A DNA stretch of 64,000 nucleotides from Reinekea blandensis MED297 (GTDB lineage: Bacteria; Pseudomonadota; Gammaproteobacteria; Pseudomonadales; Natronospirillaceae): assembly GCF_000153185.1 (NCBI RefSeq), contig NZ_CH724152.1, forward strand, positions 562,855 through 626,854, written 5' to 3'. Of this stretch, positions 1,775 through 6,856 are shown in pieces (the first letter of the stretch is position 1; each line of letters opens with the position of its first letter). The notes under the pieces were generated by a model. It ran no database searches, was not told where the DNA came from, and saw nothing but the letters and a program-made list of their open reading frames with translations. The translations under genes and the position numbers were made by a program.

Positions 1775-1941
1775 AATGGATGGTTAATTTCGCCGCATCG
1801 GGTTTGTCGTTTTACTCCGGTTCGGAGCGGGTGAAGGCTGGCAACAGTGGACGGGTTTAACGACTGGAGTGAGCGCCAATGGAGCATTCGAGCTGAGATT
1901 TTATGAAAGGGTTCTTTGTCCTATCTCCGGATGAGGAAAGC

Positions 1942-2130
1942 ATGATGAAATTCGTTAATTGGGTCATTTTAATTACCATTATCGTTTCGGCTTTAGGGCT
2001 GGCATTGGGTGTCGCCGTCCCTGAAACTCGAAATTATGTTGCATCCATTGGTATGACGTTCGCCGTGGTCGCGGGATTTATGATTTACTCCTATCAAGCC
2101 AAGGATGACAATAACGACCCGGAATCGTAA
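1942..2130 (+). CDS. small membrane protein of unknown function
   Basis: This is a 62-residue protein with two hydrophobic segments (about residues 5-27 and 36-52) and a charged tail ending in acidic and Asn residues. The start at 1942 (MMKFVNW) follows GAGGAA at 1933-1938; an upstream in-frame ATG at 1903 lacks a clear ribosome site and would add a non-hydrophobic leader. A strong terminator follows directly, so it is probably a single-gene unit. The family was not recognised. Translation is supported mainly by the hydrophobic pattern, the ribosome site and the terminator. Confidence 0.6.
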   Translation: MMKFVNWVILITIIVSALGLALGVAVPETRNYVASIGMTFAVVAGFMIYSYQAKDDNNDPES

Positions 2131-2197: not shown

Positions 2198-4222
2198 TTA
2201 CTCAAACCGATCCTTAAGTTTTTCACGCGAGACCCGGTGCCAGACAAACAGATCCTGGTTCTGATAGTGGTCGTGCTTTTCGCCTGAGCACATCACGTAG
2301 CCCTGTATCGGGTCGCAGTGTGGCGCACCGAATAAGTGGCCGGATTCATGAATCATCACGATCTGCTGTCGGTCGAGATCATTGCCGATGAAGCCGCTGA
2401 TCTGTACGTTGATCCAACCGCAGGCAACACCGCCACCCCACTCAGGTGTCATGACGACCGCGTAGTCAAAACCATGGTGGTTGGTGTTGGTGCTGACTTT
2501 GCCGCCCCAGCGTTGAGCCAACCCCAAGGTTTTAGTGATATGCGCGGTCGCTTGCTCACAACCGCCTTCCGGATAATCGGGGTCAAAGTCGAAGCCCAGA
2601 ACCGGTGCCGACAGATGCTTCATATCGAGCATCTCATCGAGCCCGCCTGCGTGATAGGTGTAGCTGTTGTTAAGGTCATTGAACAACTCACTTGGCCGGG
2701 TAAATACTTCAGTAACGTAGTCACCAGGCTGGCTCGTCCAGTTCAGTCGGGCGAAGTAATCATCGTCATAGGCAATGGCCGGGAACACAGCATTGGACGT
2801 TGCGACGGTAAAGGTTTTACCCTGATAGTTTGTATCCTCGCGAGTCACTTGATGCGGGTTGGAAATCACCACCCGATTAAGCTCATAATCCCCCGAGCCG
2901 ATGGCGTAGCGTTTGCTGTTTCGCAGATCGGTAATAAACGGTCCCACCGCAATAGCAATGGTTTGTGTTTGCGCGCCGGTCAGTTTGACTTGGGTTGCCG
3001 GTAACTGCACATCCTGATAGTCATTAAAGCGTTGACTGGTCAGGTAGGGCGTCACGGTTATCCAGCCTTGTTGACCGGAGCTGTTGTTTAGCGTCGCCGA
3101 CAGACGAAGGGTATCGCCTTTCTTCGGCGTTTGTCCTTCCAGATTGGTTGCGGCGATGCCTGTCACGTCCGGTGTCAGATCGCAACGGAGTCCCGCCTCG
3201 CAACCATAGTCAACTTTACGGACTTTGAAGGATGTCAGGTCGTTGTTGTAACCCAGATCAGTCAGGTTTTCGAGCGAGCCGCTGAGCTGGGTGGTTTGTC
3301 CTTTAAAATTAATGTCCTGATAGATGTCGATGACGTAGCCTTCGGAGACCGAAATGGAACTGACTTTATCATTCCAGAAAGTGGGCACATTGAACTCACC
3401 GGTACCGACACAGAGTTCACCGCCGCCGAATCCCGGCAGATCGTACAGGCAAGCCGCAGCCGATTTTAAGTCGCGGGTGACTTTAAGTGAGGTCGCATCA
3501 TTGTTCCAATCATCGTCAGTTAAGCAGTCATCGTCGCTGGTGAACAGTTGGGCTTTACCGTTGTAATTGATGTGTTGAAACAACTCCAGCGCATAGCCCG
3601 GTTGTACACGAACAGATGAGATCGAATCGTTTGCCAGACCTAACACGGCAAGGTCGCGCATGTTGTAATCGGCGACACTCAAGCGGGCAACGCGGCCCTC
3701 GAAGTTGCACTGGTCGTAGACTTTGGCCACCCACGGTACTTCAGTGACTTTGAGTGAGGTTGCATCGTTGTCAAAGCTGACATCGGTTAAACAGCTGTTG
3801 TCCTCGGTCAGGTGGACACTGTTGCCTTTGAAGTCGATGTGCTGAAACAGATCGAGTTCGTAACCGGGCTGAACCCGGACGGAGGAAATGGTGTCGTTGC
3901 CGATACCAACGTTGCCCAAATCACCCATGTTGAAATCACCCAACGTCAGCTTTGCGGACGCGCCTTGATAGTCACAGCCTGCGAAGACTTCGACCATCCA
4001 ATCCGGTTCAACAACGGCTTCGGCGACCGGTACGTCCTGAGCGGCTTGTGCTTCCAGTGCGGCATAATCGTTTTCGGCGATTTCGTTCGTGTTGCTCGAC
4101 TCATCCGCCGGTGTTTCTATGCTGATGTCGTTGCAGGCGGATAGCTGCATGATCATCAGTAAGCTGCCGCAAGCCATGGCAAGCCTCGACGGTTTCAGGT
4201 TCAGTGGTGACGGTTTCTTCAT
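2198..4222 (-). CDS. lipoprotein with three beta/gamma-crystallin modules and a C-terminal metzincin-like protease motif
   Basis: This is a 674-residue lipoprotein: the signal peptide ends in a lipobox LSAC with Cys30. Residues about 72-345 hold three beta/gamma-crystallin domains, that is six Greek-key motifs. Each carries the Ca-binding signature (N/D)(N/D)xx(S/T)S, seen as NDTISS, NDATS, NDSISS, NDATS, NDKVSS and NDLTS. The C-terminal part has HESGHLFGAPH at 625-635, matching the zinc site HExxHxxGxxH, and a Met-turn-like YVMCSG (Met644), which together indicate a metzincin. It probably acts at the cell surface or outer membrane as a Ca-stabilised peptidase. The middle (about 350-600) was not assigned. 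GGGAG precedes the ATG. The gene stands alone on its strand behind a LacI-type operator. Confidence 0.8.
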   Translation of the reverse strand: MKKPSPLNLKPSRLAMACGSLLMIMQLSACNDISIETPADESSNTNEIAENDYAALEAQAAQDVPVAEAVVEPDWMVEVFAGCDYQGASAKLTLGDFNMGDLGNVGIGNDTISSVRVQPGYELDLFQHIDFKGNSVHLTEDNSCLTDVSFDNDATSLKVTEVPWVAKVYDQCNFEGRVARLSVADYNMRDLAVLGLANDSISSVRVQPGYALELFQHINYNGKAQLFTSDDDCLTDDDWNNDATSLKVTRDLKSAAACLYDLPGFGGGELCVGTGEFNVPTFWNDKVSSISVSEGYVIDIYQDINFKGQTTQLSGSLENLTDLGYNNDLTSFKVRKVDYGCEAGLRCDLTPDVTGIAATNLEGQTPKKGDTLRLSATLNNSSGQQGWITVTPYLTSQRFNDYQDVQLPATQVKLTGAQTQTIAIAVGPFITDLRNSKRYAIGSGDYELNRVVISNPHQVTREDTNYQGKTFTVATSNAVFPAIAYDDDYFARLNWTSQPGDYVTEVFTRPSELFNDLNNSYTYHAGGLDEMLDMKHLSAPVLGFDFDPDYPEGGCEQATAHITKTLGLAQRWGGKVSTNTNHHGFDYAVVMTPEWGGGVACGWINVQISGFIGNDLDRQQIVMIHESGHLFGAPHCDPIQGYVMCSGEKHDHYQNQDLFVWHRVSREKLKDRFE

Positions 4223-4246: not shown

Positions 4247-4262
4247 ATGTAAGCGTTTACAT
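4247..4262. promoter_or_regulatory. LacI-family-type operator before the crystallin-protease gene
   Basis: ATGTAAGCGTTTACAT fits the LacI/GalR/CcpA pattern TGNNANCGNTNNCA exactly. It lies 25-40 bases upstream of the start codon at 4222, where a repressor could block transcription. No LacI-family gene is in the window. Confidence 0.6.
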
Positions 4263-4532: not shown

Positions 4533-5237
4533 TCAGGCATTAATGCGATAGCGTCGTTCTGGTCGCCCGACGGTGCCGTAATTCACTTCGGCGCGCAGAC
4601 GTTCCTGACCGACCAGATATTCCAGATAACGACGCGCCGTGGTGCGAGACGACCCGATGGCCTGGCCCACTTCTTCGGCGGTCAGTGCCTCGCCGCTTTG
4701 CATTTGTTGCTCGATGGTTTCCAGAGTCAGGGCGTCGATGCCTTTCGGTAATCGCGTTGGGGACTTCGATGCTTTACCGGTTTGTGAGTCACCGGGTGGG
4801 ATGATCAGCGTATCCAATCCGCTTTGATCGAGGGTGTCGAGTTGTTCAAGCGTGGTCAGATGGCTGCGGAAACGTTCGATGGCATCGACGAGTCGTTGCA
4901 GCACTAACGGTTTTAAAATGAACTCAAAGACGCCCGCGTGTAATGCACTGCGCAGGGTATCAACTTCGTTGGCGGCGGTGATCAGAATCACATCAACATC
5001 GCGGTGATCGGCGCGCCACTGTCGTAACAGGTCGAGACCATTACCTTCAGGAAAATGCACGTCGAGCAGGGCGAGGTCGGGCTTGAAAATATCAACCAGA
5101 TCGTCCGCTTCGGCCATCGAATGAGCAATGCCCACCAGTTCGATGCCGTCGATTTTCTCCAAAAACCGGCGCTGAATTTCGGCGACCTGAGGGTCGTCTT
5201 CAACGATGATGGTACGGATGGTTCTCAGGGCATTCAT
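4533..5237 (-). CDS. response regulator of the CitB/DcuR type
   Basis: The protein has 234 residues. The N-terminal receiver domain shows the acidic pair in VEDD (14-15), the phospho-acceptor Asp59 (LALLDV) and the Lys in FILKP. The C-terminal part has a helix-turn-helix ([21 protein letters not shown]) typical of the CitB/DcuR/DctR group, not OmpR or NarL. Family members activate genes for uptake and use of citrate or C4-dicarboxylates. The start codon overlaps the 3' end of the sensor kinase gene by four bases, so the two are translationally coupled. The divergent tctCBA transporter operon is the likely target. Confidence 0.88.
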
Positions 5238-6856
5238 CGGTGATCCTGGCCTCGTTTCGGGATGTAACAGATAACGCGTGTACCGGTTGGCAGTACAGGC
5301 TCAAAGTGAATGGTGCCACCGCAATGGTCGATAATCGTCTGCACCAGATGCAGGCCCAGGCCATGATCACCATCGGCTTTACTGGTGAAGCCTTTTTGGA
5401 AAATCTGTTCGGCTTGCTCCGGCGGAATGCCGGGCCCCTGATCCTGAACTTCGATGATCAGGTCATGCCCCAGATCCGTCATACTGAGTTGCACCTCACC
5501 GCCTGCACCGCGCTCCTGACGCGTGGCTTCCAGCGCGTTATCGATCAGGTTGCCCAACAGCGAGACGAGTTGATCGGCGGACAGTGAGCCGGGTAGGTCC
5601 GACAGTTGACTGTCCGGATCGAAATTAAGCTTCAGCCCCATCTCTTTAGCGCGGCTGTGTTTACCCAGCAGGCAGCCGGCCACGACCGGGTTGTCGATAT
5701 TGCGCACAATCAGTTCCAGCACTTTCTGTTGATCGACCGCTTCGGCGCCGATCAAACGCAGTGCATCCTCTTTGGCGTTCAGCTGAATCAAGCCGGCGAT
5801 GGTGTGCAGTTTGTTGGAGTACTCGTGGGCCTGACTGCGCAGCGTATCCGCGTACTGCTCGATGCGGGTCAGCTGACGACTGACCAGATCGACTTCATTG
5901 CGCGGGCGGAAACTCGACACCGCGCCGACGATGACGTCGTTCTGCTTTAACGGAATCCGGTTCACAATCATTTGTGTTCCGTTTAGCCAAACTTCTTCAT
6001 CCAGTTGAGCGTCGCCGGTTTGCATGATGTCTTCCAGTGCGGAGTCGGGCAGTACCGATTGAATGGGCTGCCCAAGGACACTGCTGCCTTCGGCGAGACC
6101 CACCATGCGAATGGCCTGCGGATTAAAAGTGGTAATCCGGCCTTCACGGTTGATCGCAATAATGCCTTCGCGGACGGACTCCAGTGTGGCTTCCTGTTCT
6201 TTGAAACTGCGGGCAATTTCATCCGGTTCGAGCCCGAAAATTTCCCGCTTCAGGCGTCGGGTGATGACCATGGCAATGCCCATGCTGAACAGCAGAATGC
6301 CACCGGAGACCGCCAACAGCCAGACGGCGTACCGGGCGATGAGCGTACGGATTTGGTTCAGAGAGTAACCGACGGAGACCACGCCGATGATGTCTTCACC
6401 GGTGCTGTCGTAGACCGGCGCCCTGGCACGCATGGATGGCCCCAGACTGCCTTCGGCTTTGTTCACGTAGGCGATGCCACGTATGAGCGCGGTCTGCCCT
6501 TGGTCACCTTCGTCATCAGCCATCGACTTACCCAGCCGTTCCGGGTTCGGGTGCGCCAAACGGATCATGCCGCGATCGCCGACCACAATGAACAGCGCAT
6601 CGTTCTCGTCGGTCAGTCGTTCGGTCAGGGACGCCAACAAGGTCAGATCGCGCTGTTGAATGCCATCGATGATGGACGGCATTGCGGCTACGGTTTTGGC
6701 GACCACCAGAGCACGATGGCCGATCTCATCATCAAGCGAGCGACTGAGGTTGAACCAGGCGAAACCACCAATCAATACCGCCTGGGTGGTCGCCATGACC
6801 GCCATCGCCAGCATGAGTCGGGTGTTGAGTTTGAACTTCTGTGTTACGAACGGCAC
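5234..6856 (-). CDS. sensor histidine kinase of the CitA/DcuS type
   Basis: This 540-residue kinase has a first membrane helix (about 15-37), a periplasmic PAS-like sensor domain (about 40-175), a second membrane helix (about 178-200), a cytoplasmic PAS domain (about 215-320), an H-box with SQAHEYSNKLHTIAGL, and an ATPase domain with EVQDQGPGI and GLGLHLV. This order is that of CitA and DcuS, which sense citrate or C4-dicarboxylates directly through the periplasmic PAS. It is divergent from tctC, so it probably senses a substrate of the TctCBA carrier. The start at GTG 6856 is uncertain because no good ribosome site precedes it; an ATG 14 codons later is an alternative. Confidence 0.88.
   Translation of the reverse strand: MPFVTQKFKLNTRLMLAMAVMATTQAVLIGGFAWFNLSRSLDDEIGHRALVVAKTVAAMPSIIDGIQQRDLTLLASLTERLTDENDALFIVVGDRGMIRLAHPNPERLGKSMADDEGDQGQTALIRGIAYVNKAEGSLGPSMRARAPVYDSTGEDIIGVVSVGYSLNQIRTLIARYAVWLLAVSGGILLFSMGIAMVITRRLKREIFGLEPDEIARSFKEQEATLESVREGIIAINREGRITTFNPQAIRMVGLAEGSSVLGQPIQSVLPDSALEDIMQTGDAQLDEEVWLNGTQMIVNRIPLKQNDVIVGAVSSFRPRNEVDLVSRQLTRIEQYADTLRSQAHEYSNKLHTIAGLIQLNAKEDALRLIGAEAVDQQKVLELIVRNIDNPVVAGCLLGKHSRAKEMGLKLNFDPDSQLSDLPGSLSADQLVSLLGNLIDNALEATRQERGAGGEVQLSMTDLGHDLIIEVQDQGPGIPPEQAEQIFQKGFTSKADGDHGLGLHLVQTIIDHCGGTIHFEPVLPTGTRVICYIPKRGQDHR

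What the first reader, a model, noticed from the sequence alone, without database searches (positions are those of the whole stretch)
2198..4222. Beta/gamma-crystallin modules fused to a metzincin-type protease in one lipoprotein
Six Greek-key motifs with Ca-binding N/D-N/D-x-x-S/T-S signatures (three crystallin modules) precede HESGHLFGAPH and a Met-turn-like YVMCSG. Crystallin modules are known in bacterial surface proteins, and metzincins use HExxHxxGxxH, but I do not recall this combination. A Ca-stabilised surface protease with crystallin stalks is plausible. The 350-600 region may hold a further domain.
Basis: partly seen in the sequence, partly recalled or inferred. Interest (0 to 1): 0.7.

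Follow-up and report, generated by a model that had tools for sequence, protein, structure and literature searches.

The report
Crystallin-bearing metalloprotease in a glucan regulon
A bacterium encodes a surface lipoprotein in which three calcium-binding crystallin modules are joined to a probable zinc protease, and its gene carries the same control site as genes for digesting beta-1,3-glucan, so it is probably the protein-cutting tool of a cell-wall digestion kit.

Summary
On the minus strand, 2198-4222 encodes a 674-aa lipoprotein: lipobox LSAC, three beta/gamma-crystallin modules (Pfam Crystall 84.7 bits), an Ig-like sandwich and a C-terminal domain with HESGHLFGAPH and a Met-turn-like YVMCSG. 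The metzincin call rests on the motif: the metzincin models that match score below their cut-offs, profile support beyond the motif is modest, and AlphaFold2 could not model the domain. One relative was found (a Gammaproteobacteria MAG; catalytic part 47% identical). Crystallin-metzincin fusions are not unique: the same order holds reprolysin-crystallin-CBM6 (two genomes) and astacin-ricin-crystallin proteins; the catalytic domain here is of a different, unnamed kind. TGTAARCGYTTACA occurs at three places in 4.53 Mb; the other two precede GH16 lipoprotein genes, one in a cluster with a GH149 beta-1,3-glucan phosphorylase and a LacI regulator. In a same-genus genome all four exact sites sit at GH16, GH81 and transporter genes. 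Best reading: the protease arm of a beta-1,3-glucan regulon, stripping protein from glucan-rich walls with crystallin modules as calcium-set tethers. New variant of a known kind.

The parts
2198..4222 (-). whole gene: 674-aa lipoprotein, crystallin x3 - Ig-like - metzincin-like
4248..4261 (.). LacI-type operator-like palindrome TGTAAGCGTTTACA, 26 nt before the ATG
   Evidence: TGTAARCGYTTACA at 3 places in the genome, reversed-pattern control 0; the other 2 precede GH16 genes
4133..4222 (-). signal peptide with lipobox LSAC (Cys30), residues 1-30
   Evidence: sequence
3740..4000 (-). beta/gamma-crystallin module 1, residues 75-161 (Ca motifs 109, 151)
3473..3730 (-). beta/gamma-crystallin module 2, residues 165-250 (Ca motifs 198, 240)
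3212..3463 (-). beta/gamma-crystallin module 3, residues 254-337 (Ca motifs 284, 326)
2798..3172 (-). Ig-like beta-sandwich, residues 351-475
   Evidence: AlphaFold2 block means 54-80 there; VIA Z up to 9.6 to Wzt carbohydrate-binding domain, GH2 and transglutaminase Ig-like domains
2201..2794 (-). metzincin-like catalytic domain, residues 477-674
   Evidence: motif; hhalign against 29 Reprolysin_5 sequences; not modelled
2318..2350 (-). HESGHLFGAPH, residues 625-635 (predicted zinc site)
2285..2299 (-). Met-turn-like YVMCS, residues 642-646
   Evidence: identical in the finding and its one relative

Best explanation
A lipid-anchored surface zinc metalloprotease of metzincin type, made together with the cell's beta-1,3-glucan digestion system. 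The N-terminal Cys30 is lipidated; three Ca-binding crystallin modules and an Ig-like domain hold the C-terminal protease away from the membrane and probably against glucan-rich wall material; the protease cuts wall (glyco)proteins so that the co-induced GH16 and GH81 glucanases reach the glucan, whose oligosaccharides are imported and phosphorolysed by GH149. A LacI-family repressor releases the gene when beta-glucan oligosaccharides arrive. Shown by computation: architecture, motifs, a palindrome shared with glucan genes. Inferred: protease activity, repression and inducer, the wall-protein substrate, and the binding role of the crystallin modules.
For: Crystallin modules above cut-off. HExxHxxGxxH plus Met at +9, conserved with the relative; hhalign probability 95.5 over 126 columns against 29 Reprolysin_5 sequences, against 45.0 over 36 columns for an M48 control. 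The palindrome pattern was taken from this gene's upstream region and then searched: 3 places in 4.53 Mb (about 0.05 expected for independent bases; reversed control 0); the 2 others lie 26 and 28 nt before GH16 lipoprotein genes, the finding's at 26 nt. With up to 1 mismatch, 11 places (about 0.6 expected) before 9 units, assigned by nearest downstream ORF, among them GH16 x3, GH81-CBM56, a CBM56-CBM6 protein and an ABC transporter. One GH16 cluster holds GH149 (1367.6 bits, cut-off 1150) and a LacI regulator. In G005 of the same genus 4 of 4 exact sites sit at genes like GH16 (60% id), GH81 (51%, two sites) and the transporter protein (77%). The three other crystallin proteins found in this genome carry GH76, GH16-CBM56 or thaumatin-CBM6 parts. 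LacI sites are mostly even palindromes with a central CG pair (PMC4052901, passages).
Against: Catalytic fold not modelled; metzincin models that match are below cut-off; with the 11-residue motif kept and the rest shuffled, 3 of 200 reach the hhalign score, and with the motif masked the probability falls to 0.9%. Two of the other 8 units with the palindrome (a metallophosphoesterase; a Mep72-like protease pair) have no direct glucan link, and the transporter's binding protein scores best with oligopeptide-type models, all below cut-off. The relative in UBA6940 has no such site within 3 mismatches in 10.3 kb, so the link is not conserved with the gene. No place in the list (up to 2 mismatches) lies at the other three crystallin genes of this genome. 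In the order survey G005 has sites but no relative of this gene. No binding data for these crystallin modules.
Confidence: 0.45

Rival explanations
1. The crystallin modules are only Ca-stabilised spacers, and the protease is a general nutrient-scavenging surface enzyme that is merely under sugar-responsive control, perhaps feeding a co-regulated peptide transporter.
For: Six canonical Ca motifs; no binding site can be shown by sequence; crystallin modules sit on many unrelated catalytic domains. The ABC transporter with two one-mismatch sites has a family-5 binding protein (237.7 bits), a family that by recall takes oligopeptides as well as oligosaccharides; its best NCBIfam model is oligopeptide Opp4A (133.9, cut-off 650).
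Against: Of 12 crystallin proteins scanned with Pfam, 8 also carry a carbohydrate-binding module or lectin (L002, L003, L004, L009, L060, L100, L102, L107); the finding, its relative, L006 and L007 do not. Most units with the palindrome carry beta-glucan enzymes or CBM56.
Confidence: 0.27
2. The modules act as a built-in inhibitor of the attached protease: Pfam Inhibitor_I36 (Streptomyces metalloproteinase inhibitor, itself a crystallin fold by recall) matches modules 2 and 3, so the protein would be a self-inhibited zymogen.
For: I36 57.5 bits over the whole protein, cut-off 21.1; modules 2 and 3 score 33.4 and 35.4, module 1 18.9.
Against: I36 also passes its cut-off in a GH76 protein (27.5), a GH16 protein (29.0), a PI-PLC-like protein (55.4) and a stand-alone crystallin protein (66.3), so the match is not specific to proteases.
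Confidence: 0.06
3. The C-terminal domain is not an active protease but a metal-binding or dead zincin used for adhesion or binding.
For: Metzincin models that match are below cut-off; low-confidence structure.
Against: His, Glu, His, His, Met all kept in a relative only 47-49% identical over the domain.
Confidence: 0.12

Closest known systems
Uncharacterised 572-aa lipoprotein of Gammaproteobacteria bacterium UBA6940 (L013 5269-6987)
   Same: lipobox-like IAAC, crystallin modules, same C-terminal region (41% over 337 aa)
   Different: about two crystallin modules instead of three, 2 instead of 6 canonical Ca motifs, no operator
Reprolysin-crystallin-CBM6 proteins of two genomes of the order (L102, L107)
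   Same: metzincin plus beta/gamma-crystallin in one protein, each over cut-off
   Different: protease N-terminal, CBM6 added; BLASTP between the catalytic domains covers only about 15 residues at the motif
Astacin-RicinB-crystallin protein (L009)
   Same: metzincin plus crystallin
   Different: M12A astacin, ricin-type lectin, crystallin C-terminal
Andreprevotia ripae IGB42_03011 (PMC8802321, passages read)
   Same: crystallin + Fn3-like + a domain resembling basic secretory proteins, in a secreted protein with raised expression on chitin
   Different: CBM5/12; other catalytic family; the paper saw no association of its homologues with chitinolytic bacteria; that the basic-secretory domain is a zincin is recalled, not tested
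Yeast-lytic proteases such as Rarobacter Protease I and the Cellulosimicrobium protease (PMC1458353, passages read)
   Same: proposed role: a protease opens the mannoprotein layer for beta-1,3-glucanase
   Different: Rarobacter enzyme is a serine protease with a CBM13-type mannose-binding domain; sequence relation not tested

Membership tests
beta/gamma-crystallin (PF00030) | profile score over curated cut-off | tested here: met
   84.7 against 25 bits
beta/gamma-crystallin (PF00030) | N/D-N/D-x-x-S/T-S Ca motif in each Greek key | tested here: met
   six motifs, two per module
beta/gamma-crystallin (PF00030) | double Greek-key fold and Ca binding | not tested
   no structure job spent on this part; Ca binding needs the bench
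metzincin clan | HExxHxxGxxH | tested here: met
   residues 625-635; same motif in the relative
metzincin clan | Met-turn after the third His | tested here: inconclusive
   Met644 nine residues on, conserved, but no structure shows a turn
metzincin clan | fold with three His on one zinc | tested here: inconclusive
   pLDDT 29.5
M12B-like Reprolysin_5 (PF13688) | score over curated cut-off | tested here: not met
   17.7-17.8 against 27
Inhibitor_I36 (PF03995) | score over curated cut-off | tested here: met
   57.5 against 21.1, but unspecific: passes in crystallin proteins without a protease
Inhibitor_I36 (PF03995) | inhibits metalloproteases | not testable with these tools
   needs the bench
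LacI-controlled beta-1,3-glucan regulon | shared palindrome upstream | tested here: met
LacI-controlled beta-1,3-glucan regulon | regulator binds and glucan induces | not testable with these tools
   needs the bench

The most novel reading that the evidence does not exclude
The C-terminal domain founds a new metzincin family (third His to Met in nine residues, four conserved Cys, no Pfam or NCBIfam model reached), and beta/gamma-crystallin modules are a general class of Ca-set wall-binding modules that bacteria place on glycosidases and proteases alike; here the protease is part of a beta-1,3-glucan utilisation regulon, so some glucan systems carry a built-in protein-stripping arm.
Probability: 0.3. 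Interest if true: 0.58.

Novelty: new variant of a known kind. Interest (0 to 1): 0.42.

Why it matters
To my knowledge (recall) the role of bacterial beta/gamma-crystallin modules is largely open. Here they recur, in one genome and its order, on enzymes that by family act on wall polymers and on several protease types, and one such protease shares an operator-like site with a beta-1,3-glucan system. That gives a direct test: do these modules bind glucan or mannan with calcium, and do polysaccharide systems induce their own proteases?

Tried and rejected
Structure: the C-terminal 337 aa with 2 sequences gave a usable Ig-like part but pLDDT of 22-33 for the catalytic part; the catalytic domain alone gave 29.5. 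The VIA search tests only the Ig-like part; it gives a fold, no function.

Relatives: 0 in plasmids, 0 in phages, 0 in viral contigs, 0 with the single sequence in genome contigs, 1 locus with the pair profile. In sampled genomes the C-terminal domain was in 2 of 390 of the order (own and G038) and 1 of 369 of the class (own); 8 of 398 of the phylum at E up to 0.1, of which the seven other than the own genome are weak (E 0.014-0.07, three with stops inside) and were set aside as chance. The G038 copy (L005) and L013 are the same protein.

NCBIfam hit to an ATP phosphoribosyltransferase subunit (19 bits, cut-off 693): taken as chance. PHROGs: one match at E 0.085. Profile test: 95.5% probability looked decisive, but the shuffle control shows that most of it is the motif; the M48 control also exceeds its own shuffles (1 of 200 reach it), so the extra support is for zincins in general as much as for metzincins. 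One of 30 reprolysin loci (L037, no motif found by the script) and one of 30 M48 loci were dropped before alignment. The terminator-like hairpin near the gene's end is one of 4 found against 4.4 expected by chance.

Literature: searches (open-licence PMC only; listings) showed me no paper on a crystallin-metzincin fusion; the nearest was PMC8802321. PMC3551895 (one passage) describes a Vibrio crystallin protein without a protease. Most subscription papers are not held.

Full report
What is there. The gene lies on the minus strand, 2198-4222, 674 residues, uninterrupted. It stands between a 75-aa plus-strand ORF (1903-2130) and a two-component pair on its own strand (response regulator 4533-5237, sCache sensor kinase 5234-6856), beyond which a Tct-type transporter runs on the plus strand (TctC scanned, the next two ORFs taken as TctB and TctA by eye). 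Residues 1-30 form a lipoprotein signal ending LSAC. Residues 75-337 hold three beta/gamma-crystallin modules: Crystall 84.7 bits against a cut-off of 25, nearest solved chains protein S and two others, one deposited as 'Carbohydrate binding protein', and six canonical Ca motifs where shuffles give 0.08 on average. Residues 351-475 model as an Ig-like sandwich. Residues 477-674 hold HESGHLFGAPH and, nine residues after the third His, Met644 in YVMCS.

Is it a metzincin? The motif is clear and unlikely by chance (6 of 200,000 shuffles). It is conserved in the one relative found, whose catalytic domain is 47-49% identical, together with four cysteines (555, 601, 636, 645) and HHGFD, WGGGVACGWIN and FVWH blocks. 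But the metzincin models that match do not reach their cut-offs (Reprolysin_5 17.7-17.8 of 27), the pair profile matches no PDB chain at E up to 10, and AlphaFold2 fails on this part. A profile comparison with 29 reprolysin-type sequences of the order gave 95.5% probability over 126 columns against 45.0% over 36 columns for 29 M48 sequences. The control tempers this: keeping the motif and shuffling the rest gives a mean score of 43.0 (sd 4.5) against 56.7 observed, with 3 of 200 as high; masking the motif leaves 0.9%. I read it as a probable, divergent metzincin, not as a member of any named family.

Is the fusion unique? No. A Crystall scan found matches in 16 of 390 genomes of the order, 13 over the cut-off. 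I checked 24 loci from it (L094-L117; 16 distinct genes by my count) for HExxH in the crystallin frame: three genes had it, the UBA6940 gene, L102 and L107. With flanks of 1500 bases this is a lower bound, and the scan did not list L009 or L060. L102 and L107 are reprolysin-crystallin-CBM6 proteins, all three parts over cut-off. From the earlier search, L009 is astacin-ricin-crystallin (153.9, 76.4, 27.9 bits) and L060 is ricin-crystallin-peptidase M60 (60.7, 30.5, 201.9 bits). In print, Andreprevotia IGB42_03011 joins CBM5/12, crystallin, Fn3 and a basic-secretory-protein-like domain and has raised expression on chitin, though its homologues were not tied to chitinolytic bacteria (PMC8802321, passages). 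The catalytic family of the finding is separate from L102, L107, L056 and L009: by BLASTP it matches them only weakly (best E 0.052, to L056). It was seen in just two genomes, and in none of the six other same-genus genomes.

What do crystallin modules sit on here? In the window's own genome the search returned three other places: a GH76 protein with crystallin, ricin and CBM6 parts (about 8 kb from the finding, outside the window), CBM6-crystallin-thaumatin, and GH16-crystallin-CBM56 (in the last two the Crystall score is below cut-off, 12.7 and 15.9, and the call rests on similarity to the finding, E 7e-11 and 5e-10, and on intact Ca motifs). By family these act on or bind mannan and beta-glucan. 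Of 12 crystallin proteins scanned, 8 carry a carbohydrate-binding module or lectin as well; the finding, its relative, L006 and L007 do not. The pattern suggests an accessory module of wall-attacking enzymes; binding is not shown.

The operator. At 4248-4261 is TGTAAGCGTTTACA, a near-perfect palindrome with central CG, 26 nt before the ATG. TGTAARCGYTTACA occurs at three places in the 4,526,761-base genome; the reversed control has none, and about 0.05 are expected for independent bases. The pattern was drawn from this gene before the other places were known. The other two precede GH16 lipoprotein genes at 26 and 28 nt. One of them heads a cluster GH16 - solute-binding protein - GH149 beta-1,3-glucan phosphorylase (1367.6 bits, cut-off 1150) - LacI regulator, just downstream of an ABC transporter (binding protein scanned, the rest by eye) with two one-mismatch sites. 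Up to one mismatch gives 11 places before 9 units, named by the nearest downstream ORF: the finding, GH16, the GH16-GH149-LacI cluster, the transporter, a CBM56-CBM6-DHOR lipoprotein, CBM6-CBM6-GH16, GH81-CBM56, a CpaB/BamI-like plus Mep72-like metzincin-ricin pair, and a metallophosphoesterase; about 0.6 are expected. The last two have no direct glucan link. Up to two mismatches: 30 against 8 for the control. Among 7 genomes of the genus, 3 have exact sites: the own genome; G005 with four, at relatives of GH16 (60%), GH81 (51%, two sites) and the transporter protein (77%); and G006 with one variant beside another LacI gene, 45% identical to the own one. Four have none. G005's reversed-pattern control count is 2, so its background is not zero. 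LacI-family sites are mostly even palindromes with a central CG pair, more than 75% of them 30-140 bp before the start codon (PMC4052901, passages); the site here is at the near edge of that range. The UBA6940 relative has no such site.

Mechanism. Shown: architecture, motif, shared palindrome. Inferred: that LacI binds, that glucan oligosaccharides induce, that the enzyme cuts proteins, and that the substrate is wall protein. The model has a precedent in function, not in family: in Cellulosimicrobium a yeast-lytic protease restores lysis by a glucanase lacking its binding domain, explained by removal of the mannoprotein layer, and Rarobacter Protease I carries a mannose-binding domain (PMC1458353, passages). 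The GH76 and GH16 crystallin proteins in this genome point to fungal-type walls, but laminarin-bearing algae fit the glucan genes as well. A second metzincin, the Mep72-like one, behind the same type of site supports a protease arm. Against it, the transporter's binding protein belongs to a family that by recall also takes oligopeptides, so that a plain protein-feeding role is not excluded.

Verdict. The combination itself is one of several in the order, so the finding is a new variant of a known kind with moderate interest.

Noticed in passing
G000:C5 273169-274732 (L056, L120): A Mep72-like metzincin with ricin-type repeats behind a CpaB/BamI-like secretion chaperone or inhibitor gene, with TGAAAGCGCTTACA upstream; the Mep72, CpaB and BamI NCBIfam scores are below cut-off.
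   Followed up: partly
G000:C4 544487-548003 (L118, L132): About 1100-aa lipoprotein-like protein joining CBM56, CBM6, Lipoprotein_15 repeats and a di-haem oxidoreductase (DHOR), with an operator-like site upstream: a redox domain on a glucan-binding protein.
   Followed up: partly
L060 907-4200: Ricin-crystallin-M60 peptidase of 1098 aa in another genome of the order.
   Followed up: partly
L102 613-2007, L107 1159-2541: Reprolysin-crystallin-CBM6 proteins in two genomes.
   Followed up: yes
L006 1516-2535: Stand-alone protein with three crystallin modules and six Ca motifs, function unknown.
   Followed up: no
L007 364-2094: Crystallin modules ahead of a PI-PLC-X-like domain just below its cut-off (21.1 of 23.1).
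   Followed up: no
L138 9229-11730; L013 8765-10033: The UBA6940 contig that holds the relative also encodes an F-box-like and a protein-kinase-like protein (by eye only), hinting at a host-associated life.
   Followed up: no
window 1903-2130: 75-aa ORF with a sub-threshold match to S_4TM (19.5 of 26.9 bits).
   Followed up: no
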